A stretch of 64,000 bases of DNA from Geomonas oryzisoli (GTDB lineage Bacteria; Desulfobacterota; Desulfuromonadia; Geobacterales; Geobacteraceae): the NCBI RefSeq assembly GCF_018986915.1, contig NZ_CP076723.1, positions 3,597,001 through 3,661,000 on the forward strand, given 5' to 3'. Every line of letters starts with the position of its first letter. Position 1 is the stretch's first letter. The notes beneath the pieces were generated by a model. The model worked only from the letters and a program-made list of their open reading frames with translations, was not told where the DNA came from and did not search any database. This document shows, one piece after another, positions 21,699 to 63,998 of the stretch. Both the position numbers and the translations under genes were made by a program.

Positions 21699-21893
21699 CA
21701 ATTGCAATTGACAATTGGCAATTGACAACGAATTTCCTGCCTTCCCTATTTCTTCGTCACTTTCGTCGATAGCTTTAGAACACATTTCGATGTCGTTCTT
21801 GCCGACGCATTCACTTCCCCCGTTGACCGTTCAGCTAAAGCCTCAACAGGGATCCTGCAGTTACCCGTTGTCAATTGTCCATTGTCAATTGCC
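21699..21893. repeat. Bracket D: inverted CAATTGA heptamer arrays
   Basis: Arm 1 (21699-21728) consists of CAATTGA/CAATTGG-like 7-mers; arm 2 (21867-21893) is its inverted form. Arm 2 ends two bases from the HD-GYP stop codon and arm 1 begins 17 bp before the TTG of cheX, so the bracket fills the intergenic gap exactly. The 138-bp interior has no clear gene. Confidence 0.8.
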
Positions 21894-21894
21894 T

Positions 21895-22857
21895 CTAAAG
21901 GAACTGTGCCGGATTGTCAGTGCAGACGATTCCCTCCAGGGCATCCAGCAACCGTTCGTTGAAGGAGCCCTTCATCTCCTGCTTCATGATCAGCAGGGCT
22001 ATGGCCGAGGAGAGCGCTTTGCGACAGGAACGGTCTATGGTCAGGGTGCAGTACACATCGCAGATGGCGGCGACTTGGGCGCTGCGCGAGATCTCCGGCC
22101 CCTTCAGCCCCTGCGGATAGCCGTTGCCGTTGTTACGCTCGTGGTGGCAACGCACCACCCCCAGCGAGATGTCGGAGAGCTTGGTGTTTTTCTTCAGGTA
22201 CTGGTATCCCTCTTCGGGATGCCTGCGGTATTCCTCCAGCTCTTGCGGGGTAAGCTTCCCCTCCTTGCTGAGGATGGCAGGAGAGACGAAGACCTTGCCG
22301 AAGTCGTGCAGCAGGGTTCCGATGCCGACATCGAGCATCTCGTCGTGGGAAAGGAGGTAGGCCTCCGAATGCAGCAGCACGGACAGGGCGGTAACCTGCA
22401 AGCTGTGCACGAAGGTGTAGTAGTTGTGGGTCATAACGCTTTCCAGCGACTGGAAGGAGTCCCGGTCACTGGCCAGGTACTGCAGAAGGTTCTCGACCAT
22501 CCTTTGACTGCGGGAGAAGTCGGATACCTTCTCGGGGTGCTCGAAGATATCCCCCACAAAGTTGATGGAGGTCTGGTAGATGATCTTCCCCTTGGTTTTC
22601 GCCTGTAGCGTATCGTCCTTCAGCACGCGCTCGGCGTTGCTCTCCATGTAGGCCGTGATCACCTCGAGATCGGCGGGACTTACGAAGAGGAATTCGACCT
22701 TGTTCTCCATCAGGCGGGCGGCGTCCTGGCTGGAGAAATTCCTGCCATGGCTCTTGTAAAGGATGTATTTGCCGCCGCTTTGTATGTACAGGGCGACATC
22801 CGGGAAGATGTCCGCCTGGATGCTCTCTATGCTTACGGGTACGTAAAGTTCCCCCAT
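21895..22857 (-). CDS. HD-GYP domain cyclic dinucleotide phosphodiesterase
   Basis: 320 residues. An N-terminal DUF3391-like region (about 1-100, VPVSIESI) precedes an HD-GYP domain with HD at 184-185 (LLHDFGKV), RCHHER and GYP at 246-248 (GNGYPQGLKG). HD-GYP enzymes hydrolyse c-di-GMP or the related cGAMP, which Geobacter also makes. ATG 22857 has GGAGG at 7 bp. A sigma-28-like promoter (22912-22938) lies just upstream, and cheX downstream, so the setting suggests control with motility or chemotaxis. Confidence 0.9.
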   Translation of the reverse strand: MGELYVPVSIESIQADIFPDVALYIQSGGKYILYKSHGRNFSSQDAARLMENKVEFLFVSPADLEVITAYMESNAERVLKDDTLQAKTKGKIIYQTSINFVGDIFEHPEKVSDFSRSQRMVENLLQYLASDRDSFQSLESVMTHNYYTFVHSLQVTALSVLLHSEAYLLSHDEMLDVGIGTLLHDFGKVFVSPAILSKEGKLTPQELEEYRRHPEEGYQYLKKNTKLSDISLGVVRCHHERNNGNGYPQGLKGPEISRSAQVAAICDVYCTLTIDRSCRKALSSAIALLIMKQEMKGSFNERLLDALEGIVCTDNPAQFL

Positions 22858-22911
22858 GGCTACCTCCGTTTCGAGCTCATGCCGGCGCCGAAGCGCGCCG
22901 ACTTTGGGTCT

Positions 22912-22938
22912 TTATCGGCAGCAAAGGGGCGACCTTGA
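22912..22938 (-). promoter_or_regulatory. Sigma-28 (FliA)-like promoter of the HD-GYP gene
   Basis: On the minus strand TCAAGGTC (22931-22938), 11-bp spacer, GCCGATAA (22912-22919). The -10 octamer is a perfect match to the FliA consensus and the -35 matches TAAAGTTT at 5 of 8. The start site would be about 48 bp before the ATG. Confidence 0.6.
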
Positions 22939-22971
22939 GGCTCGTCAACGAAAATTCCGCCCAAAAAACGG

Positions 22972-23154
22972 CTAGATTCCCGTCAGCTCCTCGATCTTCA
23001 GTTCCAGATCGTCGCCGTTCACCCGTACCACCTGCCCGTTGTCCTCTTCGGTGCGGATGACCCCCTCGTCGATCCATACCTGCAGACGCTCCATCTCCAC
23101 ACCGAATTTCTCGCAGGCCTCGGCAAGGGTGTACCAGGTCTTGGATACCAGCAT
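22972..23154 (-). CDS. Small MerR/excisionase-like helix-turn-helix protein
   Basis: 60 residues. The sequence [28 protein letters not shown] is a MerR/HTH_17-type DNA-binding turn (broken here for length: [12 protein letters not shown] is helix 1-2, [11 protein letters not shown] the recognition part and wing). The acidic end ([11 protein letters not shown]) fits a small regulator. ATG 23154 has GGAGG. It lies between two HD-GYP genes that both show sigma-28-like promoters, so a role in their control is possible but not shown. Confidence 0.75.
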
Positions 23155-23336
23155 GATAGATCCTCCTTCGCTTCGGTCCCCCGGAGCTGAGCCGTTTCCT
23201 CTAAATAAAGAGCAGCGGCCTCGGTTTTAATTACAAGTCCACCGTTGGATGGTATCGCTTATGCCTGCCATGTCAAGAAAGCGCACGGCGTAGCACCGCA
23301 AAACCACTGACCTTTTCGGGACACGCGTTTTTTCCC

Positions 23337-23363
23337 TATTCTCTGCCGCACTTGTGCCGATAA
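23337..23363 (+). promoter_or_regulatory. Sigma-28-like promoter of the HD-GYP response regulator
   Basis: Perfect GCCGATAA at 23356-23363, 11-bp spacer, weak -35 TATTCTCT (23337-23344; 4 of 8). The predicted start is about 33 bp before ATG 23404. Confidence 0.5.
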
Positions 23364-23403
23364 GAATGCGGTGGTTACTTAATGAGTAGCCGAGAGAGGG
23401 AAC

Positions 23404-24381
23404 ATGCAAAACAAGGAACTACAACGCGAGACGGTCCTATTCGTGGACGATGAGAAAAGCTACCTGGCCTACACCAGCGGGCTCTTCGAGAACCGGGGGC
23501 TCACCGTTCTCACCGCGTCTTCCGCCATGGAGGCGCTGCAGATCGTCGAGCACCAGTCGGTGGCAGTGGTCATCTCGGACAACGAGATGCCGGGCATGCG
23601 GGGTATCGAGCTCCTCTCGCGCATCAAGGAGGTCTCGCCCCACACGGTGAAGATCATGATGACCGGCAGCGCCGACCTGTCCACGACGCTGGCCGCCATC
23701 AACAGCGGCGAGGTGTTCCGTTTCGTCCTGAAACCGTGGAAGAAGGCGGAGATGCTGCGTGCCGTCAAGGACGGCATCCGCCGCTACCGCGTGCTGCAGG
23801 CGATCAAGCGGGAGGACGAGTTCATCCTGCACTCGCTGGCGCAGACCATCGAATTGAAAGACGCCTGCACCAAGGGGCATTGCGACAGGGTGGCGACCCT
23901 GGCCCTCAAAATCGCGGCGAAGCTGAGGGTTCCCGAGGACATCCAGCAGGAGATCAGGTACGGGAGCTGGCTGCACGACTGCGGCAAGATCGGCGTCCCG
24001 GAAGCCATTCTCAACGCGGAGCGCGCACTGACGCCGGAAGAGTTCAAGATCGTCATGAAGCACCCGGAGTGGGGGTGCGAAGTGGTAAGAAAGGCGAACC
24101 TCTCGAAGACGGTCCAGGACATCGTGCTCTACCACCACGAGCGGTACGACGGCAAGGGGTACCCCTACGGGCTGGAAGGAAGCAAGGTTCCGATCGAGGC
24201 CCAGATCGTCGCGACCGCAGACATCTGCGACGCGCTCACCATGGACCGTCCCTATCGCAAGGGGTTCAACCGTGAAGAAGTGATGTGGACCATAAAGGGG
24301 ATGAGCGGCTCCAATCTTGATCCCAAGCTGGTGCAGATCCTGTTCTCCCTGCTGACAGAGGAGGAAGCGACCGAAATCTAG
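23404..24381 (+). CDS. Response regulator with HD-GYP output domain (RpfG-type)
   Basis: 325 residues. REC domain 8-125 with acidic pair Asp15/16, phospho-acceptor Asp59 (VISDNEMPG) and Lys110 (LKPW); HD-GYP domain about 140-320 with HD at 191-192 (WLHDCGKIG) and GYP at 252-254 (YDGKGYPYG). Phosphorylation should control degradation of a cyclic dinucleotide. No histidine kinase is adjacent. ATG 23404 follows GAGAGGG. A perfect sigma-28 -10 octamer lies 41 bp before the start codon. Confidence 0.93.
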   Translation: MQNKELQRETVLFVDDEKSYLAYTSGLFENRGLTVLTASSAMEALQIVEHQSVAVVISDNEMPGMRGIELLSRIKEVSPHTVKIMMTGSADLSTTLAAINSGEVFRFVLKPWKKAEMLRAVKDGIRRYRVLQAIKREDEFILHSLAQTIELKDACTKGHCDRVATLALKIAAKLRVPEDIQQEIRYGSWLHDCGKIGVPEAILNAERALTPEEFKIVMKHPEWGCEVVRKANLSKTVQDIVLYHHERYDGKGYPYGLEGSKVPIEAQIVATADICDALTMDRPYRKGFNREEVMWTIKGMSGSNLDPKLVQILFSLLTEEEATEI

Positions 24382-24420
24382 GTGCTCCTCTCCTCCCCGT
24401 GTCCGATCCCAAAATCCGGA

Positions 24421-24443
24421 GGCCGACCTTAAGAAGGTCGGCC
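24421..24443. terminator. Hairpin after the response regulator gene
   Basis: Perfect 23-base palindrome GGCCGACCTT-AAG-AAGGTCGGCC, 40 bp past the stop, with only a weak T content after it. Confidence 0.45.
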
Positions 24444-24528
24444 CTAAAAGTGCGTGTTCGCTTCCATCGTGATATGCAGGGGGTGGGAGTTAGAGAGAGA
24501 TGGCTGAGGAGGGATAAGTTGCTACGAT

Positions 24529-24561
24529 CCAAGGCCCTGATCCAGAGGATGAGGGCCTTGG
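24529..24561 (-). terminator. Hairpin after the thioredoxin-fold gene
   Basis: CCAAGGCCCT / AGGGCCTTGG stem, 5 bp past the stop at 24566 on the minus strand; no T-run. Confidence 0.4.
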
Positions 24562-24565
24562 CGAT

Positions 24566-24928
24566 TTACTTCTTCTTGCGTACCTCGTCGACCGCCTTCT
24601 CGAAGCGCGCCTGATCGAATCCCTTCAGCACCTTGGCATCTTCCCCTATCACGATAACCGGAACACCCTGGCTCTTGTACTTGCCCGTCACCAGTTCCAT
24701 CGCGGCACTGTCCAACTCGACATCCCTGTTGATGAAGGGGATGTTGTTCCTGGTGAAGTATTCCTTTGCGGCCCGGCAATGCGGGCACCAGGAGGTCGAG
24801 AAGAGGACGATCTTCGGATACTTGGTCTGCACGCTGTGGCTGCCAAGCGGGCTTTGCGGGAGTTGCTCGGCGCCGGCGGCCGGGGCCAGCAGGGATACGG
24901 CCAGGATTGCGGTTAACAGGATGCGCAT
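24566..24928 (-). CDS. Secreted thioredoxin/glutaredoxin-fold protein with CPHC motif
   Basis: 120 residues from ATG 24928, six bases after GGGGGA; a GTG two codons upstream would touch the site. Signal peptide (LTAILAVSLLAPAAGA), then a fold with VLFSTSWCPHCRAAKEYF: Cys48 and Cys51. The rest (FINRDVELD, GVPVIVIGEDAKVLKGF) is glutaredoxin-like with a cis-Pro (VPVIV). Probably a periplasmic thiol-disulfide oxidoreductase. The PDZ gene ends two bases upstream (TGA-AC-ATG), so they are co-translated. Confidence 0.85.
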   Translation of the reverse strand: MRILLTAILAVSLLAPAAGAEQLPQSPLGSHSVQTKYPKIVLFSTSWCPHCRAAKEYFTRNNIPFINRDVELDSAAMELVTGKYKSQGVPVIVIGEDAKVLKGFDQARFEKAVDEVRKKK

Positions 24929-24930
24929 GT

Positions 24931-25314: not shown

Positions 25315-25360
25315 GGCCAGTGAAGTTATACGAGAGCCGCCCCGGCTGTCAACTATGCTT

Positions 25361-25389: not shown

Positions 25390-25423
25390 TGATGCATTAA
25401 AATCCACCAGTGGAGTCGTTCAC

Positions 25424-26809
25424 ATGACCGCTAGAACCAAGGTGAAACAGGCGCTGGACCAGGGCAAAGCCGGCAGCACCATCCTCGTCAAGGGGTGGAC
25501 GCGCACCATCAGAAACAGCAAGGGGGTAACCTTCATCTCCCTGAACGACGGGTCGTGCCTCTCCGGGATCCAGGTGGTCGCGGAACCCGACCTCGAAAAT
25601 TACGACGAGGTGACCGGCATCGGCACCGGCAGCGCCCTCGCCGTCACCGGACTGTTGCAGGAATCGCCGGCGGCCGGGCAGAAACTGGAGCTGAAGGCAC
25701 AGCAGATCGAGGTGGTCGGCGGCGCGGACCAGGAATACCCGATGCAGAAAAAGCGTCACACCTTCGAGTACCTGCGCACCATCGCCCATCTCAGGCTGCG
25801 CAGCAACACCTTCGGTGCCGTCTTCCGGGTTCGCTCGGCCCTGGCCCAGGAGATACACCGCTTCTTCGCGGAGCGCGGCTTTCTCTACGTGCACACCCCG
25901 ATCATCACCGCCAACGACTGCGAAGGCGCAGGCGAACTGTTCCGGGTCACCACGCTCGACCTCGCCAACCCGCCCCTGGTGAACGGAACCATCGACTTCT
26001 CCAGGGACTTCTTCGCTACCGGCACCGGGCTCACCGTGAGCGGTCAGCTCGAAGGCGAGCTGTTCGCCCAGGCCTTCTCCGACATCTACACCTTCGGGCC
26101 GACCTTCCGTGCCGAGAACTCCAACACGGCGCGCCATGCCGCCGAGTTCTGGATGATCGAGCCGGAGATGGCCTTTTCCGACCTCGCCGACGACGCCGAC
26201 CTCGCCGAAGCCTTCCTCAAGAGGCTGTGCCGCTTCGCGCTGGACCACTGCTGCGAAGACATGGACTTCTTCAACAGCCAGATAGACAAGGGGCTGATTG
26301 AGAGGATCGAGGCGGTGGCGCAGGCTTCTTTCGCGAGAATGGACTATGGGGAGGCGATCGAGCGGCTCAAGAAGGCCCCGGTGTCGTTCCAGTTCCCGGT
26401 GGAGTGGGGGCTCGACCTGCAATCCGAGCACGAACGATACCTTACCGAGCAGGTGGTGGGCGGCCCCGTCTTCATACTCAACTATCCCAAAGCCATCAAG
26501 GCCTTCTACATGAGGCAGAACGACGACGGCAGGACCGTCGCAGCCATGGACCTGCTGGTCCCCAAGGTGGGCGAGATCATCGGCGGGAGTCAGCGCGAGG
26601 AACGGCTGGAGCTTTTGGAACGGCGCATGCTGGAAACAGGTATCGCGCCGGAGTCCCTTTCCTGGTACCTCGACACCCGGCGCTGGGGCTCCACGCCGCA
26701 CGCGGGCTTCGGGCTCGGCTTCGAGAGGCTGATCATGTATCTCACCGGCATGGAGAACATCAGGGACGTGATCCCCTTCCCGAGGACGCCGAGGCACGCG
26801 GAGTTTTAG
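25424..26809 (+). CDS. asnS: Asparaginyl-tRNA synthetase
   Basis: 461 residues, usual length. An N-terminal OB-fold ([23 protein letters not shown]) is followed by the class II core with [21 protein letters not shown] (motif 2; quoted in two parts: [19 protein letters not shown]), GGSQREERL, and motif 3 [11 protein letters not shown]. The set of residues is that of AsnRS rather than AspRS. ATG 25424 has GGAG and a good promoter upstream, so the open frame reaching back to 25283 is not coding. Its stop is followed after three bases by hexamer array A4. Confidence 0.96.
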
Positions 26810-26903
26810 AGACAGATAAAGATGAAGATAAAGATTGAGATTAAGAAGAAGACTAAGGGAGGCCGCAGCAGATTTGCCACGTAGCACTGCCGGGACCCTC
26901 GCG

Positions 26904-27050
26904 CTCCCCCCTTTGCGAAGGGGGGACGGGGGGGATTTGCCTTAGTTCCTACAACCATCCGTAGAAGCAACCATTCCGCAAATTCCGCAAGCAGATGGCT
27001 TATTGTTCACAAAATCACCCCCCCCTGCCCCCCTTCGCAAAGGGGGGAAC
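26904..27050. repeat. Inverted pair of CCCCTTTGCGAAGGGG palindromes (G7)
   Basis: The left unit, ending in GGGGGGATTTGCC, lies at 26904-26940 and the right mirror unit at 27010-27050 (CCCCCCTTCGCAAAGGGGGG). Each unit is itself a hairpin and the two are inverted to each other. Confidence 0.7.
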
Positions 27051-27133
27051 GTCAGGCCTCGTGCAGCGCTTCGGTGGGACATAAACCTGGTTCCCCAGAA
27101 TTCCGAGATGAACCGTACCGGGAGCAGCAACGA

Positions 27134-27177
27134 AGAGAGGCAAGGGCCATGTGGCGCCTTGCCTCTCTCTTTTTCTT
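27134..27177 (+). terminator. Hairpin with T-rich tail, plus-strand sense
   Basis: AGAGAGGCAAGG / CCTTGCCTCTCT stem with loop GCCATGTGGCG, followed by CTTTTTC. The orientation suits transcripts running from asnS, although it lies 325 bp past that gene. Confidence 0.55.
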
Positions 27178-27193
27178 AATCTTAATCTTAGTC

Positions 27194-27949
27194 TTAATCT
27201 GCCTTTGTGGCCGCCTGGGGCCAGTAGCTGCCGCCGGTGAGCACGGCTTTTATCTTGCCGATCTTCACCTTGGTCGAGACCATCACCGGTATCTTCAGGG
27301 CATCGTCGGTAAGCCAGACTTTGACCTCACCGGTACGGGCGAAGAAACCATCCGCTTTCATCATGGGCTGCACCACGATGGTCTTGAAGTGTCCCACCGG
27401 GGTGTCGATCTCCTCCCGCTTGAGCACCTTCACCTCCGTGTTCCAGAGCTTCTTGCAGTCGTAGATGTCAACGAAGAGGGAGCGCCCGGGAACGAGATCG
27501 AGGGTACGGACATAGTAGACGATGGAGAGCGGATCGTAGGTGGTCGCGCTGATGTCGTCGACGCGCTGGGTCTTGTGCAGGAGATCCTTCGACTCGACCT
27601 TGAGCTTCTGCTGATCGAACCTGGCCTCCTTGAGACGCCGGTGGCTTCCCTCGCTGATCTTGTTGCGGAAGTACTTCGGGAAACCGAAGCGGTCGCCGCT
27701 GCCGCGCACGACTACCGACTCGGCACGGTCTTCCACCCGGAAGAAGGTGTCCAGCCATGGGGTGGAGCGGGTCGTGGTGACGATGTGGAGTTCGTTCCCC
27801 TTGGTGTTGAGCTCCTGGGTCGTGACCCCGGCCTTGATCCCGGTCCAACTGACGTCGTAGACCAGTTTCTCGTTGGGACTCATGGCGTGGGCCGGCAGGG
27901 CGGAGAGTATCAGAAGTGCGAAAAAGGACAATAAGGCTGAAATTTTCAT
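27194..27949 (-). CDS. Periplasmic DUF3108 protein
   Basis: 251 residues with a signal peptide (LLSFFALLILSALPAHA). The body matches the DUF3108 pattern: EKLVYDVSWTGIKAG, TTTRSTPWLDTFFRVEDRAES, and the end VWLTDDALKIPVMVSTKVKIG. The fold is expected to be a large beta structure; function unknown. ATG 27949 is preferred over the GTG two codons upstream, though neither has a clear ribosome site. The last residue and stop are written in hexamer array A5. Confidence 0.85.
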   Translation of the reverse strand: MKISALLSFFALLILSALPAHAMSPNEKLVYDVSWTGIKAGVTTQELNTKGNELHIVTTTRSTPWLDTFFRVEDRAESVVVRGSGDRFGFPKYFRNKISEGSHRRLKEARFDQQKLKVESKDLLHKTQRVDDISATTYDPLSIVYYVRTLDLVPGRSLFVDIYDCKKLWNTEVKVLKREEIDTPVGHFKTIVVQPMMKADGFFARTGEVKVWLTDDALKIPVMVSTKVKIGKIKAVLTGGSYWPQAATKAD

Positions 27950-28114: not shown

Positions 28115-28137
28115 TGCAGGGTTGACGCCGATAGGGG

Positions 28138-33852: not shown

Positions 33853-33883
33853 ATGTGCACTCGCCCGCCTTTTATTGCTTTTC

Positions 33884-34033
33884 CCGATTGGCGACGATCT
33901 TCCACTACCTCCCACTCCCCCCTTTGCGAAGGGGGGGCGGGGGGGGATTTGCCTTTCCGAACCTTAAGCAAATCCCCCTAAATCCCCCTTCGGAAAGGGG
34001 GACTTTTACCAGCGGAAGATTGTCACTAATCGG
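33884..34033. repeat. MITE-like element E1 with 26-bp terminal inverted repeats
   Basis: Terminal arms CCGATTGGCGACGATCTTCC... (33884-33909) and the inverted match (34008-34033) agree at about 20 of 26 positions. Inside lie two mirror CCCCTTTGCGAAGGGG hairpins. The right end is one base from the stop codon of the EIIA gene. A second copy lies at 58096-58326. Confidence 0.7.
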
Positions 34034-34034
34034 A

Positions 34035-37001: not shown

Positions 37002-38549
37002 TTAGAAATGCTTCTTGCGCTCCGAGGACGAGCCGATGCGGAGCATCTCGCGGTACTTGGTGACGGTGCGCCGGGCGATCACGATGTTGTGGTCGGACAG
37101 GAGCTCCGCCAGGCGCTGGTCCGAGTAGGGGCGCTTGGGGTCCTCGTTGTCGACCAGCTCCTTGATCTTGCTCTTGACGCTCTCGGAAGCGATGAAATCC
37201 CCCTCGCCGGTGGAGATGCCCGAGTTGAAGAAGTACTTCAGCTCGAAGAGCCCCTGGGGGGTCTGCATGTACTTGTTGGTGGTGACGCGGCTGATGGTGG
37301 ACTCGTGCATGCCGATGTCCTCGGCGATGTCGCGCAACACCAGCGGGCGCAGGTGCTCGATGCCGCGGTCCAGGAAGTCGCGCTGGAACTTCACGATGCT
37401 TTTCGCCACCTTGAAGATGGTGCGCTGGCGCTGCTGGATGCTCTTGATGAGCCAGATGGCGGAGCGCATCTTCTCGCCGATGTAGTCCTCGGCCACCTTG
37501 TCCACCTGGCGGGTGCTCTTGGTATCGGGGGCGTAGATCGGGTTGATCCTGAGGTTGGGCATTCCCTCGTCGTTCAACATCACCACGTACTCGTCCCCCA
37601 CCTTGTGCACGAAGATGTCGGCGGAGATGTACTGCACGTCGTCGCTGCCAAAGACCCGCCCCGGCTTGGGATCGAGCTCGGCGATGATCCGGGTCGCCGC
37701 CAGGATGTCGTTCACGTCCACGCCGAGCACCTTGGCCGCCTGCTTGTACTTGTGGCTCTCCAGGTCCTTCAGGTGGTCGCGCAAAAGCGCCTCGACCAGG
37801 CTCCCGGACATCCCCAGGCTCGCCACCTGGATCAGCAGGCACTCGCGCAGGTCGCGCGCGCCCACGCCTACCGGGTCGAACTCCTGGATCCGCTTCAGAA
37901 CCCCCTCGACCAGCGGGGACAGCACGCTTGCGGCGAAGCCGTCGGCCGCTTCGGTCAACTGCTCCTCGGGTGCGTCGGCGGAAAGGCCGGACCACTCCAG
38001 GACCTCTTCGCTGAAGGGGCTCGCCTGGACGCAGGCCGAGGCGATGTCCTCCATGCTGGCACGCAGGTAGCCGTCCTCGTCGATATTGCCGATGATCTCG
38101 GCCCCGACCGCCATCTCCCGGTCGGTGAGACGGGTCAGGCTCAACTGCCAGAGCAGGTGGTCGAACAGGGTGGATTTCTTGGTGAGGAGGTTTTCAAAGG
38201 AGGGACGGTCCTCGTCGTCGTAGTACTGCTCGCCGGAACTGTAGTTGTAGCCGTCGATGTAGGAGTCCCAGTCGGCTTCGCGGGTCTCTTCGCCGGCACG
38301 GACTTCCTGGAAGTCGCTGGCGGAACTTTCCGGCTCCGCCTCCTTCTCGCGCAGTTCGAGCTGCTCGGGCTCGCGGATCTCCTCCTGTTCGATCACCTCG
38401 TCCAGGATGGGGTTTTCCTCGAGTTCCTGCCGCACTACGTCCTGCAGCTCCAGCCGGGAGAGCTGAAGCAGCTTGATGGCCTGCTGCAACTGGGGGGTCA
38501 TCACCAGTTGCTGACTCATTTTCATCTGCTGGCGCATCTCAATTGCCAT
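37002..38549 (-). CDS. rpoN: RNA polymerase sigma-54 factor
   Basis: 515 residues. Region I is Gln/Leu rich (QQLVMTPQLQQAIKLLQLSR), region II acidic (about 55-125), then the core-binding and HTH domains; the RpoN box is ARRTVTKYRE at 492-501. It directs transcription from -24/-12 promoters with NtrC-type activators. ATG 38549 follows GAGGACTT. A candidate promoter with a perfect TATAAT lies inside the heptamer bracket upstream. Confidence 0.97.
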   Translation of the reverse strand: MAIEMRQQMKMSQQLVMTPQLQQAIKLLQLSRLELQDVVRQELEENPILDEVIEQEEIREPEQLELREKEAEPESSASDFQEVRAGEETREADWDSYIDGYNYSSGEQYYDDEDRPSFENLLTKKSTLFDHLLWQLSLTRLTDREMAVGAEIIGNIDEDGYLRASMEDIASACVQASPFSEEVLEWSGLSADAPEEQLTEAADGFAASVLSPLVEGVLKRIQEFDPVGVGARDLRECLLIQVASLGMSGSLVEALLRDHLKDLESHKYKQAAKVLGVDVNDILAATRIIAELDPKPGRVFGSDDVQYISADIFVHKVGDEYVVMLNDEGMPNLRINPIYAPDTKSTRQVDKVAEDYIGEKMRSAIWLIKSIQQRQRTIFKVAKSIVKFQRDFLDRGIEHLRPLVLRDIAEDIGMHESTISRVTTNKYMQTPQGLFELKYFFNSGISTGEGDFIASESVKSKIKELVDNEDPKRPYSDQRLAELLSDHNIVIARRTVTKYREMLRIGSSSERKKHF

Positions 38550-38601: not shown

Positions 38602-38812
38602 GTTCTACGTTCTACGTTCTATGTTCTACGTTAAAAGCCGGAAACCTGCTGACAGACCGTGTAATTGGTGCTTGTACGAGCTGTGTGAGAATGGAACGTT
38701 CTGATGTTCATGGAGCTGCTGTTCTCTTTGTTCTCATTATAGCGCAAGCCACGAACTTTGGCGACTGTGCTTTGCATTTTAACGTAGAACGTAGAACCTA
38801 GAACGTAGAACG
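38602..38812. repeat. Bracket C: inverted GTTCTAC heptamer arrays around the rpoN promoter
   Basis: Arm 1 (38602-38634) is four to five GTTCTAC units; arm 2 (38779-38812) is the inverted form (TTAACGTAGAACGTAGAAC...). Arm 2 ends 10 bp from the lptB stop. The interior holds the only promoter-like sequence for rpoN. Confidence 0.8.
38736..38764 (-). promoter_or_regulatory. Candidate sigma-70 promoter of rpoN
   Basis: On the minus strand TCGCCA (38759-38764), 17-bp spacer, perfect TATAAT (38736-38741). The leader to the rpoN ATG would be about 180 nt and would contain arm C1. Confidence 0.6.
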
Positions 38813-38822
38813 TCTTTTTTCT

Positions 38823-39560
38823 TTACAGCCTGAACTTGTCCCCCAGATAGATTTCCCGGGCCTTCTTGCTCTGGGAAATCTGGACCGGGTCGCCGAATTC
38901 GAGGACCTCGCCGGCGTTCATGATGTACGCCTTGTCGCACACGCCCAGGGTCTCGCGCACGTTGTGGTCCGAGATCAGCACCCCGAGCCCCTTCCCCTTC
39001 AGCGCCGTGATGATGTTCTGGATATCGATCACCGCGATGGGGTCGATGCCGGCGAAGGGCTCGTCGAGCAGTATGAAGCTGGGATCGGTGGCCAGCGCCC
39101 GGGCGATCTCGACCCGGCGCCGTTCCCCGCCGGAAAGCGCGTAACCGCGGCTGCCGGCGATGTGCTCGATGCGGAACTCAGCCAGCAGTTCCTCCACCCG
39201 CTCCCGGCGCCGCACCGGCTCGAGCTCCATGGTTTCCAGCACGGCGAGGAGGTTGTCCTTCACGGTGAGACGCCGGAACACCGACGGCTCCTGCGGCAGG
39301 TAGCTGATGCCCCGGCGCGCCCTCTGGTACATGGGAAGTCCCGTGATCGGTTCGCCGTCCAGGAAGACCTGCCCCTGGTCGGGACGGGTCAGCCCCACCA
39401 CCATGTAGAAGGTGGTGGTCTTGCCGGCGCCGTTGGGGCCCAGGAGCCCGATCACCTCTCCCGAGGAGATCTCGAGGTCCACCCCCTTCACCACCATGCG
39501 CTTGTTGAAACCCTTCTGAAGCCCCTTGGTGTAGAGGGTGCTACGGTTTGGCACCGACAT
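38823..39560 (-). CDS. lptB: LPS export ABC transporter ATPase
   Basis: 245 residues. Walker [10 protein letters not shown] at 41-49, signature [15 protein letters not shown], Walker [14 protein letters not shown] and the switch His in LISDHNVRE. It powers extraction of LPS by LptFG. The start overlaps the lptA end by 20 bp, showing tight coupling. rpoN follows on the same strand. Confidence 0.97.
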
Positions 39561-42850: not shown

Positions 42851-44314
42851 TTATTTGGAGGAGAGGATCTTGTCGATGATGCGACTGGTGGAACGTCCGT
42901 CGACGAACTCGATCAGCGCGACCCGTCCTCCCATGGATTCCACCAGTTCGCGCCCGACCACCTGGTCCACGCTGTAGTCCCCCCCCTTGACCAGGATGGC
43001 CGGGCGGAGCGCTTCGATCAACGCGAGCGGGGTGTCCTCGTCGAAGAGCACCACGTAGTCGACGCACCCCAGGGCCGCCAGGATGTGGGCCCGCTCCTTC
43101 TCCTCGATGAGCGGCCTCCCCTCCCCCTTGAGCCGGCGCACCGAGTTGTCGGTATTGAGCCCCACCACCAGGATGTCGCCCAGCTCCCGGGCCTTTTGCA
43201 GGTACTTCACGTGCCCCACGTGCAACAGGTCGAAGCAGCCGTTGGTGAAGACGACCTTTTTGCCGCGTGCGCGCTCCCGGGCCACGAGGTGGACGAGGAC
43301 GTCGGGGTTCTTGATCTTGGAGTCGCTGTCGCCGAGCGAGTGGCCGACCTCCGCGATGATCTCGCGCGGGGAAACTGTCGAAGTCCCCAGCTTGCCGACC
43401 ACGATGCCGGCGGCCACGTTGGCCACCCAGGCCGCGTCCGCGAGCGTCAGCCCGCAGGCAAGCCCGAGCGAGAGAACCGAGATCACCGTGTCGCCGGCGC
43501 CCGTCACGTCGTACACCTCGCGGGCCACGGTCGGGATGTGCACCGCCTCCCCCCGGGCCGGGAAGAGCGACATCCCGGCCTCGCTGCGGGTGATGAGGAG
43601 GGCGTCGAGCTCCAGATTGGCGAGAATCTTGGCAGCGGAGAGTTCCAGCGAGGCCTGGTCCGTGATGGCGATCCCCGAGGCGACCTCGGCCTCCTTGCGG
43701 TTGGGGGTGAGCACGGTGGCGCCGCAGTACTTGGCGAAGTCGTCCCCCTTGGGATCGACCACCACCGGCACACCGAGCTCCCGTCCCTTGCGGCAGAGCG
43801 CGGCGAGGAGCGTCGGCGTCAGTACCCCCTTCAGGTAGTCCGAGACCACCACCACGTCGAATTCGCGGAGGTGGGTGAGGAGGTAATCGAGCAGCGCCTT
43901 CTCGCTGGCGGCGCCGATCGACGAGCGCATCTCCCGGTCGATGCGGACGATCTGCTGGTTGGCGGCGATGACGCGGGTTTTCTTGCTGGTGGTCCGCTCG
44001 GGGTCCTCGACCAGCCCGTCCACATCCGTCCCTTTTTCCTCCAGGGCGTGGCGCAGGAGTTGGCCGTTTTCGTCCGTGCCGATCACCGAGCCGACCGCGA
44101 CCCGGCAGCCAAGGGCCGCGAGGTTGTTGACCACGTTACCCGCGCCACCCAGGCGCAGGTCCTCGCGCGCCACCTCGACCACCTGCACCGGCGCCTCCGG
44201 CGAGATCCGTTCCGCGCGTCCCCAGAGGTATTCGTCCAGCATCAGGTCGCCGACGACCAGGGCGCGCACGGTCGCGGCGCGTTCGAAAAAGGATTCTACT
44301 TCACGTCTATCCAT
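42851..44314 (-). CDS. hldE: Bifunctional heptose 7-phosphate kinase / 1-phosphate adenylyltransferase
   Basis: 487 residues. N-terminal ribokinase-like domain (about 1-320: [33 protein letters not shown] with the catalytic Asp) and C-terminal cytidylyltransferase-like domain (about 345-487: [14 protein letters not shown]). It makes ADP-heptose for the LPS inner core, used by heptosyltransferases such as the gene at 53538. ATG 44314 lies 17 bp from heptamer arm B1. Confidence 0.96.
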
Positions 44315-44330
44315 GCAGTCTCCTAAAGCC

Positions 44331-44852
44331 GTTCAACGTTCAACGTTCAATGTTCAATCGGCATCTTTGGCTAAAGTTTTACTGCAAAAATACGTTGTAC
44401 CAGTAAAAAAAGGGCTAAGCCAAGTCTAGGCCTTACGCTGGCTGCTTTTCAGGAACCTGATAAACCCGTTTAAAATATTGCTTATTCTGTTGCACCGCTT
44501 CATCACCGTTTCGAAATTCTTTTGATCAAGATGACCGATATCGAGTCCCGCATACGCGAGGCTTTTGACTTCCGAGAGAGACCCACGAGAGATTATGAGA
44601 TACTGGATGAACTCTTTGTTACTCCTCGATCAAATCCTTCTGCAATGTTGGACATCACCGAAACGGCAGCTCTTTGGATCTGGTCACGAAATCCGTAGTC
44701 CCTACACCCGCCAAGGTGTTGGTAGACTTCGCTCACCAACAGCCGTGCTTCTTTCCACGAATCAACATCTTCGAACCGCTGTATTCTCACGTCGCCACCT
44801 CCGGTACAGGTAAAGCAGTGTAGAAGTTAACGTCGAACGTTGAACGTTGAAC
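44331..44852. repeat. Bracket B1/B2: inverted GTTCAAC heptamer arrays
   Basis: Arm B1 (44331-44357) is four GTTCAAC/GTTCAAT units; arm B2 (44827-44852) is inverted. B1 starts 17 bp before the hldE ATG and B2 ends four bases from the stop of the gene at 44857. The 470-bp interior holds a broken four-helix-bundle gene. B2 is identical over 26 bases to the arm at 63973-63998. Confidence 0.85.
44426..44790 (-). pseudogene. Frameshifted four-helix-bundle protein (S23 / 23S rRNA intervening-sequence type)
   Basis: The start is GTG 44788-44790 with GGAGGT six bases upstream. Residues RFEDVDSWKEARLL, QIQRAAVSVMSNIAEGFDRG are family marks. The frame then ends early, but shifting by one base at about 44613-44617 (in the run CTCTTTG, plus strand) restores FIQYLIISRGSLSEVKSL, then AYAGLDIGHL, to a stop at 44426. 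Rebuilt length is about 121 residues, normal for the family. So a single one-base deletion inactivates it, unless frameshifting or a sequencing error is involved. It sits alone inside bracket B. Confidence 0.85.
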
Positions 44853-44856
44853 GGCC

Positions 44857-45801
44857 TTAGATTCTGTCGAGTATTGCTGCTGCCAACAGCGGCAGCATGA
44901 TCTCGTGATGCCCGGTGACGGTGTAGCCGCGGCTGGCGCCGGAGGTGGGACGCTTGACCACGTTGGTGAGCGGCCGGTAGTGCTGCTGCATGTCGAAATT
45001 GGCGGTGGTGAACCGGTCGACGTGGTGCCCCAAGTTCTGCGCGATGGAGAGGGCCTTCAGGAACACTTCGGGCAACAAGACGGCACTGCCGATGTTGAGA
45101 TAGACGCCGCCGTCTCCCAGCTCGGAAACGACGGAGGTGAAAATCCGGAAATCTGTGAAGCTCGCGGCGCCCAAAACGGCGCCGTCGGCGGAGGGATGCT
45201 GATGGGTAATGTCGGTACCGATGGCAACGTGCACGGTGACCGGAATCCCTTTCTGAACGCACGCGGCCATCAGGCTCTGCTCTCGATAGGGCAGGCCACG
45301 CTCGAGGATCATCCGCCCCAGCGATTCGCCGTGCCCGAGCCCCTTTGCTACGCCCTGCTTCAGGGCCTCGTTGATCTGGGCGCCGGTCTCCTCGGCCATA
45401 CCGAAATTCCCGGCATGCAGGACGGCGCCGACGTCCTCGCTGGTGGCGCCAATCAGGGCGATCTCGAAGTCGTGGATGGAACCGGAGCCGTTCAAGGCCA
45501 CGGCGGTGATCACGTCGGCGTCGATGAGAGACTTGAGCACGGGCTGGAGGCCGCACTTGATGACGTGCCCGCCCATGGCCAACACCACGGGTTTCCCCTT
45601 GGCGCGGGCGGCGACGACGGCGTCGATGACGCCGTTCAACGCCTGGGAACCAAGCTGATCGGGCATGGCGGCCAAAAGCTCTGCGACGGTCATGCCGGGC
45701 TTGACCGGCTTGGCGAAGTGCTCCTGCACGTTCATCTTGTTCTTACGGGACGCTATCGGGTAGGTGCTGACACCAGAAAAATCGAGTGGCCGGTATTTCA
45801 C
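44857..45801 (-). CDS. Uncharacterised protein, distantly deoxyhypusine-synthase-like
   Basis: 314 residues from GTG 45801 (AAAGGA upstream). No signal or membrane segment. Features: AMGGHVIKCGLQPVLKSLI, a Gly-rich ALNGSGSIHDFEIALIG, GNFGMAEETG, VAIGTDITHQHP and a C-terminal TVTGHHEIMLPLL. The pattern 'loss-of-label loop, then NGSGSIHDFE' recalls the NAD-dependent deoxyhypusine synthase fold, but the catalytic Lys motif of true DHS is not evident and bacteria lack its eIF5A target. It sits inside an LPS/surface sugar cluster between two repeat elements. Function unknown; the relation is tentative. Confidence 0.6.
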   Translation of the reverse strand: MKYRPLDFSGVSTYPIASRKNKMNVQEHFAKPVKPGMTVAELLAAMPDQLGSQALNGVIDAVVAARAKGKPVVLAMGGHVIKCGLQPVLKSLIDADVITAVALNGSGSIHDFEIALIGATSEDVGAVLHAGNFGMAEETGAQINEALKQGVAKGLGHGESLGRMILERGLPYREQSLMAACVQKGIPVTVHVAIGTDITHQHPSADGAVLGAASFTDFRIFTSVVSELGDGGVYLNIGSAVLLPEVFLKALSIAQNLGHHVDRFTTANFDMQQHYRPLTNVVKRPTSGASRGYTVTGHHEIMLPLLAAAILDRI

Positions 45802-57003: not shown

Positions 57004-57026
57004 TGCAGAAACATCCTTGGTCAAAA

Positions 57027-57120
57027 CTCCTCCCCCCGGAGGGGGGAGGCTGGGAGGGGGGAAGCTGTTTGTAAATGCCGCTGCGCGCCCCCTCCCTGAC
57101 CCTCCCCCTCCGGGGGAGGG
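57027..57120. repeat. Double-palindrome element G5
   Basis: CTCCCCCCGGAGGGGGGAGG and mirror CCCTCCCCCTCCGGGGGAGGG around a 35-bp centre, between the waaA start and the stop of the acyltransferase. Confidence 0.75.
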
Positions 57121-57139
57121 AATGTTGCCCCAAAGGTGG

Positions 57140-58066: not shown

Positions 58067-58383
58067 CGATATTCCTCAAACGCCCAACGGGAAAGTGATT
58101 GGTGACGATCTTCCGCTACCGGCCACTCCCCCCTTTGCGAAGGTTCATCCGGAAATTCTGGGGAAGCTTTGCCGTAGCTGGCCACAAGGTTGCACAAGGC
58201 ATCACGTCCCCCCCTTTGCGAAGGGGGGACAGGGGGGATTTGCCTCTCCCGAACCAAAAGCAAAATCCCCCTAAATCCCCCTTCGCAAAGGGGGACTTGT
58301 ACCAGCGGACGATTGTCACTGATCGGGACAGGAAAATGAATTCTTACGTTTCCCCCTCCCGTCGAGGAGGGGAGGAGACCCAA
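58067..58383. other. Gene-free gap holding element E2
   Basis: 317 bp between msbA and the acyltransferase. It holds the inverted-repeat element 58096-58326 and a further small hairpin (CCCCTCCCGTCGAGGAGGGG, near 58352-58373). No gene seen. Confidence 0.6.
58096..58326. repeat. MITE-like element E2, copy of E1 with an inner insertion
   Basis: The outer arms TGATTGGTGACGATCTTCCG... (58096-58120) and inverted (58301-58326) match those of E1. The inner right part (58206-58297) is the paired CCCCTTTGCGAAGGGG hairpins. About 80 bp not found in E1 (58140-58205, with GGTTCATCCGGAAATTCTGGGG) is inserted; fragments of the same insert appear near 27090-27115. Confidence 0.7.
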
Positions 58384-61265: not shown

Positions 61266-61281
61266 AAGAACCTCTTAAAGA

Positions 61282-61348
61282 CAGGTTGAGGTTGAGGTTA
61301 AGGTTGAGAAAAAGCATCTTCCTTGACCTCAACCTTAACCTTAACCTG
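61282..61348. repeat. Hairpin of inverted hexamer arrays A6 between lpxA and lpxB
   Basis: Arm 1 (61282-61308) and inverted arm 2 (61322-61348), each four to five AGGTTR hexamers, leave a 13-base loop. The pairing over about 27 bp (with some G-U) would make a stable RNA stem. It ends four bases from the lpxA stop and starts 17 bp before the lpxB ATG. Confidence 0.85.
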
Positions 61349-61352
61349 CCTT

Positions 61353-62129
61353 TTACCGTGCGACCCCGCGCTTGGAGCTCTCGATGAACTCGATGAAGTG
61401 GTCCACCTCGGGGCATTTCGGCACGTCGCTCTTCATCTTCTCGACAGCCTCGGTAAGCTTCAGCCCGGACATCGCAAGCAGCTTGTAGGCCTTCTTCAGG
61501 CTGGAGATGGTCTCGTCGGAGAACCCGCGACGCTTCAGCCCGATCAGGTTCAGGCCGCGCAGCCGGCTTTCGGAACGGTCGCCGGTGATGATGGTGTAAG
61601 GGGGGACGTCCATCGGAACGGAGGTCATGCCGCCCACCATCACGTGCGCGCCGATGCGCATGAACTGGAGCACTGCGCAGAGCCCGCCCAGGATGGCGTA
61701 GTCCTCGACGGTCACGTGGCCGGCGAGGGTCGCGGAATTGGCCATGATCACGTTGTTGCCGATGTGACAATCGTGCGCCACGTGCGAGTACGCCATGAAG
61801 AGGTTGCCGTCCCCGACGGTGGTCTCGCCGTCGCCGGTGACGGTGCCCAGGTGCAGGCTCGCGAACTCGCGGATGGTGTTGCCGTTGCCGATCTTAAGCC
61901 AGGTCTTCTCGCCGCGGTACTTGAGGTCCTGCGGAATTGCTCCGACGGACGCCATGTGGAAGATGGTGTTCGCCTCGCCTATCTCGGTCCAGCCGTCGAT
62001 GACCGCGTGCGGACCGATCTTGGTCCCCTTGCCGATGCTGACGTTTTCGCCGATCACGGCGTACGGGCCGATTTCGACACCCTCGGCGATCTTGGCGCCC
62101 GGGTGGATTATTGCGGTGCTGTGGATCAT
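61353..62129 (-). CDS. lpxA: UDP-GlcNAc acyltransferase
   Basis: 258 residues with left-handed beta-helix hexapeptide repeats (IHPGAKIAEGVEIGPYAVIG region), catalytic His in AYSHVAHDCHIGNN, and the C-terminal helix bundle (LKRRGFSDETISSLKKAY split). It starts lipid A synthesis by 3-O-acylation of UDP-GlcNAc. It lies 15 bp after fabZ. Confidence 0.96.
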   Translation of the reverse strand: MIHSTAIIHPGAKIAEGVEIGPYAVIGENVSIGKGTKIGPHAVIDGWTEIGEANTIFHMASVGAIPQDLKYRGEKTWLKIGNGNTIREFASLHLGTVTGDGETTVGDGNLFMAYSHVAHDCHIGNNVIMANSATLAGHVTVEDYAILGGLCAVLQFMRIGAHVMVGGMTSVPMDVPPYTIITGDRSESRLRGLNLIGLKRRGFSDETISSLKKAYKLLAMSGLKLTEAVEKMKSDVPKCPEVDHFIEFIESSKRGVAR

Positions 62130-62144
62130 AAAATTCTCCGTGTA

Positions 62145-62579
62145 CTACTTGTCGCCCAGCGTTGCCTTCAGTTCCGCCTCGGTCATCAGGGTTTCGCCGA
62201 CGTAGGCCTTGGCGCCGCAGCTCCAGATGCCGCGCTTGCTGAACAGGGTCTCCACCTCTATCCTCAGGGTGTCGCCCGGCTTCACCGGCTTTCTAAAACG
62301 TGCGTTGTCGATGGCCATGAAGTAGCTCACCTTCTCCTTGGCTTCCGCGCCCATGGCGGTGTAGGCCAGGATGGCGGCGGACTGCGCCATGGCTTCGATG
62401 ATGAGGACGCCCGGCATGACCGGGAAGCCCGGGAAGTGCCCCTGGAAGAAGGGCTCGTTCATGGTGACGTTCTTGATTGCGACCACGCGCTTGCCCGGCT
62501 CGAGTTCGAGGACCTTGTCGATCAGGAGGAACGGGTAACGGTGGGGCAGGATTTCCATAATCTGGACTATGTCGAGCAT
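62145..62579 (-). CDS. fabZ: 3-hydroxyacyl-ACP dehydratase
   Basis: 144 residues from ATG 62579 (AAGGAG upstream). Hot-dog fold with catalytic His13 (ILPHRYPFLLID) and Glu in GVLIIEAMAQ; GHFPGFPVMPG loop present. It dehydrates the 3-hydroxyacyl-ACP used also by LpxA/LpxD, so it sets the balance between lipid A and phospholipid. Placement between lpxD and lpxA is standard. Confidence 0.96.
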   Translation of the reverse strand: MLDIVQIMEILPHRYPFLLIDKVLELEPGKRVVAIKNVTMNEPFFQGHFPGFPVMPGVLIIEAMAQSAAILAYTAMGAEAKEKVSYFMAIDNARFRKPVKPGDTLRIEVETLFSKRGIWSCGAKAYVGETLMTEAELKATLGDK

Positions 62580-62646
62580 GCTGATTTCTCTCCTTGCATC
62601 GGCGCGAAGCCCGTCGGGCTTGAGCCGAAGTAATTGCATTCTAGTG

Positions 62647-62726
62647 CTCCTCCCCCTGGAGGGGGGAGATTGGGTGGGGGGACGCGCAAAGCCCCCTCCC
62701 TAGCCCTCCCCCTCCGGGGGAGGGGA
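62647..62726. repeat. Double-palindrome element G6
   Basis: CTCCCCCTGGAGGGGGGAG and mirror CCCTCCCCCTCCGGGGGAGGGG, about 20 bp from the lpxD stop. Confidence 0.75.
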
Positions 62727-62744
62727 CAAATATCGTGTTTAGTG

Positions 62745-63785
62745 TTACGCGCCTTTTTGCGCCAGCTTTTCCTCCAGCTCGGCGACCCGTTTCTCCAGGG
62801 CGGAGAGGGTCTTCCTGAACTCGGGGAGCTTGGGGACCAGGGTGGAGCTCTTCAACCACTCGCGGTGCGGCATGACCGGGGTTCCGGAAAGGACCTGGTT
62901 CGGCTCGACGTTACCCGGGACGCCCGACTGGGCGCCGATCATCACGTTGTCGCCGATCTTGAGATGCCCCGCGACGCCGACCTGGCCGCCCAGGATGACG
63001 TGCTTGCCGAGCTGGGTGCTGCCCGATATGCCCACCTGGGACACGATCATGCAGTCCTCGCCGATGACGCAGTTGTGAGCGATCTGGACCAGGTTGTCGA
63101 TCTTGGTGCCGCGCTTGATGCGGGTCACTTCCAGCGCCGCGCGGTCGATAACCGCGTTGGAGCCGATCTCGACATCATCCTCGATCACCACGATGCCTAT
63201 CTGCGGGATCTTGTACCAGGAGCTGCCGTCGGGGGCGTAGCCGAAGCCGTCCGAGCCGACCACGGTGCCGTCGTGGATGGTGACCCGGTTGCCGATACGG
63301 CAGCGCTCGCGGATGCTGACGTTGGCGTAGAGGGTCACGTCGTCGCCCACGCTGGAGCCGGGGTAGAGGACCACGCCCGGATAGAGGGTGACGCGGTCGC
63401 CCACGGTCACGCCGGGGCCGACGCTGGCGCCGGGATAGATGGTGACGTCCGCCCCGATCTTGGCGCCGGGAGCCACGAAGGCGCCGGGAAGCACCCCCAG
63501 CCGCGGCGGCGGGGCCGTGTAGAACAGGGTCAGGAGTTTCGCGAAGGCCAGGTAGGGGTTGGTGTGGAAGATGGCGTTCTTGCCGTGGGTGTTGCCCCCC
63601 ATCCCCATCAGCACGGCCGAAGCGTTGGTGGTGGCAACCTTGCCGGCGTACTTGGGGTTGGCAAGGAAGGTGAGCTGCCCTTCCCCTGCGTCATCCAGGG
63701 TGGCCAGCCCGTCGATCAGTATCTCGCCGTCCCCGGCGACGGTGCCGCCAAGGTGTTCTGCTATCTCACGAAGGGTCTTTTTCAT
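62745..63785 (-). CDS. lpxD: UDP-3-O-(3-hydroxyacyl)glucosamine N-acyltransferase
   Basis: 346 residues. N-terminal uridine-binding domain (about 1-100, [29 protein letters not shown]), hexapeptide beta-helix with catalytic His in [11 protein letters not shown], and a C-terminal helical tail ([17 protein letters not shown]) that forms a trimer. It adds the second acyl chain to the lipid A precursor. It heads the visible lipid A run. Confidence 0.96.
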
Positions 63786-63800
63786 GCAAACCTCAAAAAA

Positions 63801-63998
63801 CGTTCAACGTTCAATGTTCAACGTTCGAAAAAGTGGGTGCCGTCAGACAACGTCCAGCGTGACTTGTCGCCTCTCAAAACGACAATTCCCCCGAGCTCGT
63901 AAGGGCAGGAAGACTGCGCCGCGTCACTGTGCGGTTGCAGCCCCTGCCCCCCTTCGGCAAGGGGGGAGGGTCTTAACGTCGAACGTTGAACGTTGAAC
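63801..63998. repeat. Bracket B3/B4: inverted GTTCAAC heptamer arrays
   Basis: Arm B3 (63801-63827) begins 16 bp before the lpxD ATG; the inverted arm B4 (63973-63998) ends at the window edge and is identical to arm B2 over 26 bases. The interior holds a CCCCCTTCGGCAAGGGGGG palindrome and no gene. The next gene lies beyond the window. Confidence 0.8.

What the first reader, a model, noticed from the sequence alone, without database searches (positions are those of the whole stretch)
21699..63998. Tandem-oligomer brackets that fill the gap from stop codon to ribosome site
Inverted pairs of short tandem oligomers occupy whole intergenic gaps. In same-strand gaps the outer arm ends 2-5 bp from the upstream gene's stop (D: 2, B1/B2: 4, A6: 4) and the inner arm starts 16-17 bp from the next start codon (D 17, B1 17, B3 16, A6 17). 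In convergent gaps arms begin 3 bp after, or overlap, the stop. Different sequence families obey the same rule, so position seems set by a mechanism or by selection, not by sequence homology. Short tandem repeats are known in cyanobacteria and others, but I know of no report of this bracket rule. It could be an insertion process that targets non-coding gaps, or an RNA fold that insulates neighbouring genes.
Basis: seen in the sequence. Interest (0 to 1): 0.8.

Follow-up and report, generated by a model that had tools for sequence, protein, structure and literature searches.

The report
IVS-like hairpin elements between genes
The paired short repeats that fill gaps between genes look like the ends of small selfish elements whose full-length form carries the gene of a four-helix-bundle protein known mainly from insertions in ribosomal RNA genes, and such bracketed genes turn up in many bacterial phyla.

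Summary
In this genome three heptamer families form inverted pairs: of 52 gaps holding both orientations all 52 start with '>' and 51 end with '<'. Arms lie a median 5 bp from a stop (null 80) and pile up about 15 bp above starts. A family-blind test finds edge-to-edge inverted repeats in 18 of 341 gaps against 1 of 1021 swapped pairs. Paired tandem arrays were already noted in Geobacter (2009).

New is what they belong to. [quoted passage not shown] In the genus 23 of 24 IVP loci first examined lie between inverted tandem-oligomer arms, of five families. Among 79 relatives from many phyla 54 are bracketed, against 4 of 311 swapped and 0 of 266 displaced controls; 71 of 108 arms have period 7. 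One species shows a deletion derivative: arms plus the first 19 IVP codons.

Best reading: IVS-like selfish elements in transcribed spacers, tolerated only between stop and ribosome site. RNase III processing and mobility are inferred. The insulator idea is not supported.

The parts
44330..44357 (.). left ('>') arm, family A, (GTTCAAC)n, of the IVP-bearing bracket; 15 bp from the start codon of the gene at 42851-44314 (-)
44829..44853 (.). right ('<') arm, family A, (GTTGAAC)n; 3 bp from the stop of the gene ending at 44857 (-)
44465..44772 (-). [quoted passage not shown] the same site holds an unbroken gene in G004
63799..63826 (.). left arm, family A, 13 bp from the start of the gene at 62745-63785 (-)
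63975..63999 (.). right arm, family A; the window ends here
38602..38632 (.). left arm, family B, (GTTCTAC)n; 52 bp from the called start at 38549
38781..38813 (.). right arm, family B, (GTAGAAC)n; 9 bp from the stop at 38823
21699..21730 (.). left arm, family C, (CAATTGA)n
21866..21892 (.). right arm, family C, (TCAATTG)n; 2-3 bp from the stop at 21895
26814..26852 (.). left arm, family D (AGATAAAGATGA, period 6/12), 4 bp after the stop at 26809
27168..27200 (.). right arm, family D (TCTTAA), overlapping the stop of the (-) gene ending at 27194
61277..61308 (.). left arm, family D-like (AGGTTG)n
61321..61353 (.). right arm, family D-like (CCTTAA)n, reaching the stop at 61353
13853..13869 (.). 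right arm TTTCTTAACCTTAACCT, partner of 13647-13663, overlapping the stop at 13863

Best explanation
Each bracket is one small element: two inverted arms of short tandem oligomers (mostly heptamers) around a variable middle. Full-length elements carry in the middle one gene, for the four-helix-bundle protein IVP (PF05635, TIGR02436), known from intervening sequences (IVS) of 23S rRNA; most copies are short and lack it. Shown: the arms and their fixed > ... < order; their place between stop and ribosome site; bracketing of IVP genes in the genus and in many phyla; one derivative with arms and only the first IVP codons; empty and differently occupied orthologous gaps. Inferred: elements enter transcribed spacers and survive there because a hairpin between stop and ribosome site leaves both neighbours translatable; the RNA stem (about 24 pairs) is cut by RNase III as in rRNA IVS; IVP, a pentamer in the solved relative, binds the repeat units (perhaps one heptamer per subunit) and helps the family multiply, short copies using it in trans. 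The placement rule is then mainly selection on insertions into what were short spacers.
For: IVP link: 23 of 24 genus loci first examined have inverted tandem arms, families A 10, B 2, D 5, E 5, J 1; with fixed 250-bp windows 20 of 24 against 1 of 136 other small genes. These 24 are 22 of the 25 hits over 80 bits, the broken window copy and one hit under the cut-off. Wider: 54 of 79 loci bracketed at score 14, 4 of 311 swapped, 0 of 266 displaced. Arm period 7 in 71 of 108 arms. Arm and protein similarity go together (Mantel r 0.22, 0 of 2000 permutations, 62 elements) and the left-arm unit reads GTT/GTC on its own strand only in 34, on the other only in 7, both 4, neither 17. Copies elsewhere: in the genomes of L205 and L239 the arm heptamer of their own IVP element occurs 153 and 69 times (control 2 and 3), in the second listed as + then - pairs about 50 bp apart. 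A-arm count is higher in 10 genomes with an A-type IVP (25-178) than in 9 without (0-122, median 9), p 0.001 without correction for kinship. Derivative in G006. Turnover: six paired gaps in six relatives, read by eye: same family 18, other family 14, empty 4. Stem: 46 of 52 brackets have at least 18 arm-arm pairs in the predicted fold. Published IVS of Coxiella: 28-bp terminal stem cut by RNase III, three tandem heptamers before the S23p gene, gene in sense (PMC4990558, abstract, passages and discussion read).
Against: Middles of the 52 brackets are mostly unrelated and only one holds IVP remains, so descent of the short copies from IVP elements is shown once. Families C, F and H have no IVP found. 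G012 and G013 have 129 and 127 B-arm matches with neither A- nor B-type IVP, and G018 has 122 A-arm matches with a B-type IVP only (G018 is 85% complete). The 24 genus loci are only 7 insertion sites, so IVP elements look mostly inherited; new insertion was not caught. In 6 of 8 wide genomes the GAGTTGC pattern was not clearly multi-copy, though only 4 of the 8 carry that heptamer in their own IVP arms. 25 of 79 wide loci lack arms at score 14. No known catalytic activity in IVP. Co-direction with the upstream gene is 24 of 24 in the genus but 46 same, 6 opposite, 2 unknown in the wide set against a background of 419 of 542 (p 0.04). Inner windows of long gaps also give 4 of 139 inverted repeats at score 14.
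Confidence: 0.7

Rival explanations
1. The arms are made by a replication or recombination process acting on any non-coding gap (slippage plus fold-back templating), and the IVP gene is a passenger that survives well inside such hairpins.
For: Families with no IVP obey the same placement rule; mixed A/B arms occur; middles are unrelated.
Against: Arms flank IVP genes far more often than other small genes (20 of 24 against 1 of 136; 54 of 79 against 0 of 266 displaced windows); arm sequence follows protein sequence; shared polarity GTT/GTC is not expected from slippage.
Confidence: 0.15
2. Host-serving RNA elements: a long stem in the spacer that insulates cistrons or processes mRNA, kept by selection on the fold.
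For: Arms are transcribed, next to stop and ribosome site; 46 of 52 form at least 18 arm-arm pairs; the bracket at 38602-38813 is kept in nine species.
Against: Stem absent from the predicted fold in 3 of those 9 species; orthologous gaps are empty or hold unrelated families; convergent gaps are bracketed too, 5 of 47 at score 14.
Confidence: 0.08
3. Paired binding sites for nucleoid proteins (IHF/HU) or another regulator, as the 2009 authors guessed for similar pairs in G. metallireducens.
For: Paired, oriented, multi-copy sites of fixed unit length; proposed in print (PMC2700814, passages).
Against: Placement follows stop and ribosome site, not promoters; 0 of 74 divergent gaps have edge-to-edge pairs and 6 of 92 armed gaps are divergent; the enclosed IVP gene is unexplained.
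Confidence: 0.04
4. Elements moved by a REP-type tyrosine transposase (RAYT) or another transposase of the genome, with IVP as an accessory.
For: In G012 and, by sequence similarity read by eye, G006 the same gap as window 44315-44856 holds a different element with an IS200-like Y1_Tnp gene (22.6 bits, cut-off 23); REPIN/RAYT pairs are a known model (listings only).
Against: That gene has its own, different repeats; I saw no transposase inside any A, B, C, D or E bracket examined, but did not search the genome for transposases.
Confidence: 0.06

Closest known systems
Intervening sequences (IVS) of bacterial 23S rRNA genes (Salmonella, Leptospira, Coxiella)
   Same: Terminal inverted repeats forming a stem of about 28 bp, tandem heptamers at one end in Coxiella, S23/IVP gene in sense to the host transcript, sporadic spread (PMC4990558, abstract, passages, discussion).
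   Different: Here the elements lie between protein genes, not in rRNA; they form families of tens of short copies without the gene; both arms are tandem repeats; RNase III cutting is not shown.
Paired tandem octa-/heptanucleotide sites of Geobacter metallireducens (classes 1-3)
   Same: Tandem units of 7-8 nt, paired on opposite strands at variable distance, multi-copy, mostly intergenic (PMC2700814, passages).
   Different: Read there as regulator (IHF/HU) sites; no placement rule, no IVP link in the passages seen; unit sequences differ. Its supplements were not open to me.
REPIN / REP elements with RAYT transposases
   Same: Short paired inverted repeats in extragenic space, many copies, cognate protein gene flanked by the same repeats (recalled; listings seen).
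   Different: Arms are tandem oligomers, the middle is unrelated between copies, and the protein is a four-helix bundle with no known catalytic site.
Avd accessory protein of diversity-generating retroelements
   Same: Same fold family: E-type IVP matches bAvd weakly (25.8 bits, cut-off 40); DivGenRetAVD hits 3 of 12; PF05635-Avd homology stated in PMC10053308 (passages).
   Different: No reverse transcriptase or variable/template repeat was seen or searched for beside the brackets.
Intergenic TAACTGA heptamer repeats of Beggiatoaceae and cyanobacterial heptamer repeats
   Same: Tandem heptamers in gaps near start codons (PMC4679880, passages).
   Different: There mostly one forward-oriented array before a start; one inverted case of 170 sets in the passages seen; not bracketing.

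Membership tests
23S rRNA intervening sequence (IVS) | lies inside a 23S rRNA gene | tested here: not met
   No Rfam match at gathering score in the window or in 14 of the 54 bracketed wide loci; genus elements lie between protein genes
23S rRNA intervening sequence (IVS) | terminal inverted repeats that form one long stem | tested here: met
   46 of 52 G000 brackets with at least 18 arm-arm pairs in the predicted fold
23S rRNA intervening sequence (IVS) | full-length form encodes S23p/IVP | tested here: met
   PF05635 in brackets: 23 of 24 genus loci, 54 of 79 wide loci; profile finds solved IVP 2gsc, E 5e-29; TIGR02436 in 12 of 12
23S rRNA intervening sequence (IVS) | gene in sense with the host transcript | tested here: met
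   upstream neighbour on the IVP strand in 24 of 24 genus loci, 7 sites; 46 same, 6 opposite, 2 unknown in the wide set
23S rRNA intervening sequence (IVS) | excised from RNA by RNase III | not testable with these tools
   needs RNA work
MITE (non-autonomous DNA transposon) | copies share their interior as well as their ends | tested here: not met
   52 interiors compared: few short matches, mostly nested arms or 14-40 bp pieces
MITE (non-autonomous DNA transposon) | target-site duplication at an empty/filled pair | tested here: inconclusive
   gap 1592973: four relatives have a 26-27 bp gap with one CAACTG where G000 has the C bracket; arms are palindromic, so a duplication cannot be told from the arm itself
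REP/REPIN | flanks or serves a RAYT (Y1) transposase | not tested
   no genome-wide transposase search was made; the one Y1-like gene met has other repeats
DGR accessory locus | reverse transcriptase with template/variable repeats | not tested
   only protein family similarity was seen

The most novel reading that the evidence does not exclude
A widespread, unnamed class of bacterial selfish elements whose only protein is an IVP pentamer that reads tandem heptamers, one unit per subunit, on the element's own RNA (or the single-stranded DNA under it) and drives its copying into transcribed spacers; the IVS of rRNA genes are the special case that landed in rRNA, and many unexplained intergenic heptamer pairs are its short copies.
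Probability: 0.35. Interest if true: 0.95.

Novelty: new variant of a known kind. Interest (0 to 1): 0.85.

Why it matters
IVP/S23 genes are common, conserved, structurally solved and without a function; the origin and movement of rRNA intervening sequences have been open since 1990 (stated in PMC4990558). If IVP genes typically sit between inverted tandem heptamers in mRNA spacers, with short copies spread over the genome, the protein's ligand and the element's life cycle become directly testable in a culturable Geobacteraceae host, and a class of unexplained intergenic repeats gets a parent.

Tried and rejected
Rejected: classical MITE with a shared interior. Host insulator kept by selection on the stem (stem absent from the fold in 3 of 9 orthologues; no compensation seen by eye). 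Slippage alone (orientation and IVP link). Rfam gave nothing in the window or in 14 wide loci. IVP remains in short brackets: a profile search of six-frame translations of 52 brackets found only the window copy. An rRNA motif scan of the wide loci with motifs typed from recall gave nothing and is weak. Exact repeat strings in papers: only unrelated papers. The TAACTGA system was considered and set aside. Weak PF05635 hits: of six fetched and looked at late, two also show inverted tandem arms near the match (L177, score 32.5, period about 11; L188, score 15), four do not; the other weak rows and three hits over 80 bits (G008, G014, G005) were not examined. Two single-arm gaps were left out of the 36-comparison tally, which was made by eye. 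No structure prediction was run; the fold rests on sequence matches to solved chains.
Full report
What was given. The window lies at G000:C1:3597001-3661000 of a 4.85-Mb single-contig genome; genus names are withheld. The closest named relatives of its IVP protein are Geobacter and Geomesophilobacter records; my guess of Geomonas is recalled knowledge, not a result.

The observation. Arrays at 21699-21730/21866-21892, 26814-26852/27168-27200, 38602-38632/38781-38813, 44330-44357/44829-44853, 61277-61308/61321-61353 and 63799-63826/63975-63999 are inverted pairs; a further pair lies at 13647-13663/13853-13869. In a systematic 800-kb sample 25 of 31 tandem arrays of period 5-9 are intergenic, 1 expected from shuffled gaps. 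Over all G000 sequence used (partly targeted) there are 160 arms of families A (GTTCAAC), B (GTTCTAC) and C (CAATTGA), 3 in called genes. Order is fixed: of 52 gaps with both orientations 52 start '>' and 51 end '<'; 40 gaps have one orientation. Stop-side distances have median 5 bp (n=86), start-side mode 15 and median 23 (n=69), far from a uniform null. G009 repeats the pattern in stretches chosen around hits.

Family-blind test. Comparing the two edges of 341 gaps of 70-800 bp in the systematic sample gives an inverted repeat of score 14 or more in 18, against 1 of 1021 swapped pairs and 4 of 139 inner-window controls; at score 18 it is 13 of 341, 1 of 1021 and 0 of 139. By gap type at score 14: co-directional 13 of 220, convergent 5 of 47, divergent 0 of 74. 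Further families appear there, some not tandem (for example CCGTTAGCCACGGAGAAA and a REP-like GGGACTGGCTCCGCCAGGTGCC).

Not a shared interior. The 52 middles are mostly unrelated.

Orthologous gaps. The bracket at 38602-38813 is kept in nine species. In six relatives of six paired G000 gaps, read by eye, 18 of 36 comparisons show the same family (some nested with others), 14 another family and 4 an empty gap. At gap 1592973 the C bracket of G000, G008 and G014 is absent in G002, G004, G006 and G017, which have 26-27 bp with a single CAACTG. The window gap 44315-44856 holds the A bracket in G000 and G004, a different element in G006 and G012 (in G012 with an IS200-like gene, 22.6 bits, just under the cut-off) and 91 bp without arms in G017.

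The enclosed gene. The middle of the window's largest bracket matches PF05635, 23S_rRNA_IVP, in two pieces: a broken gene. Of 25 genus hits over 80 bits I examined 22, plus the broken copy and one hit under the cut-off: 23 of these 24 lie between inverted tandem arms. With fixed 250-bp windows the score passes 14 in 20 of 24, against 1 of 136 other genes of 80-180 aa; the four misses are two D-type loci whose arms touch the reading frame, the broken copy and the sub-threshold hit. Of six weak hits examined late, two are bracketed and four are not. The loci fall into seven insertion sites; at one site nine species have A arms and two have B arms with a correspondingly different protein.

A derivative. 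At the E-type site four species hold the E bracket with the gene, and G006 holds the E arms with only the first 19 codons of the gene. Five species hold an H bracket, four an F bracket, G003 and (by eye) G016 other inverted pairs, G009 is nearly empty, and G007 and G015 could not be resolved.

Other phyla. From 80 loci (best of 555, capped list) 79 had both flanks: 54 pass score 14 against 4 of 311 swapped partners and 0 of 266 displaced windows. 71 of 108 arms have period 7, 13 period 9, 11 period 8, 1 period 10, 12 none; 27 of 46 left arms begin within 20 bp of the end of a same-strand upstream frame (rough frame calls). Arm and protein similarity correlate (r 0.22, 0 of 2000 permutations) and the left-arm unit prefers GTT/GTC on its own strand (34 against 7; 4 both, 17 neither); these elements are not independent samples.

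Copies and cognate protein. The heptamer of the L205 and L239 elements is multi-copy in their genomes (153 and 69 matches, controls 2 and 3), with + then - pairs visible in the second; six other genomes in that search were not clearly above control or had only a few matches. In the genus, A-arm matches are 25-178 in ten genomes with an A-type IVP and 0, 0, 0, 7, 9, 10, 10, 20, 122 in nine without (p 0.001, kinship not corrected). B arms are 153 and 164 in the two genomes with a B-type IVP, but 1-190 in the other 17, with G012 and G013 high and no A/B-type IVP.

Stem. 46 of 52 brackets have at least 18 arm-arm pairs in the predicted fold, median 24; three have fewer than 10. At 38602-38813 the stem is absent from the fold in G017, G013 and G010, which speaks against a stem kept for the host.

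Prior work. Paired tandem sites in G. metallireducens (PMC2700814, passages) and gap-filling direct repeats in G. bemidjiensis (PMC2996986, one section and passages) are the same kind of thing, read there as regulator sites or left open. The IVS of Coxiella has a 28-bp terminal stem cut by RNase III and tandem heptamers before the S23p gene (PMC4990558, abstract, passages, discussion). IVP in rRNA insertions of CPR bacteria is noted in PMC11270868 and PF05635-Avd homology in PMC10053308 (passages). Ten searches of one open-access library gave no report of IVP genes bracketed between protein genes; absence there is not absence in print.

Conclusion. I read the brackets as IVS-like selfish elements with IVP-bearing parents and mostly IVP-less short copies. 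Identity of the element rests on results; RNase III cutting, binding of heptamers by the IVP ring and movement are inference. Membership in IVS proper fails on location, so I file it as a new variant that works like IVS.

Noticed in passing
window 57019-57060 / 57088-57130: G-rich inverted pair that fills another gap in the same manner, not tandem heptamers.
   Followed up: no
window 33853-34034: Weaker inverted pair (score 13) next to a stop, not tandem.
   Followed up: no
window 26900-27060, 63940-63970, 33970-33989, 58263-58282: AAATCCCCCT repeats and CCCCCCTTTGCGAAGGGGGG palindromes inside or near brackets.
   Followed up: no
L031, L032:13320-14210: In G006 and G012 the gap orthologous to window 44315-44856 holds another element with GGGCGAATNATTATTCGCCC repeats; in G012 with an IS200-like Y1 transposase gene (22.6 bits, just under the cut-off).
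   Followed up: partly
G000:C1:366683-367390 (L085): An A bracket lies between a stop and what looks like an RNase P RNA gene (recalled, no Rfam call on it).
   Followed up: no
L177 and L188: Weak PF05635 hits in G003 and G016 also lie near inverted tandem arrays, of period about 11 and 8.
   Followed up: partly
L204 and L194: Bracketed IVP genes with long arms that are not simple heptamer arrays.
   Followed up: no
G012:C12:150126-150201 and G000:C1:4077556-4077658: Very long single arrays of the B and A heptamers, ten or more units, suggesting expansion by slippage.
   Followed up: no
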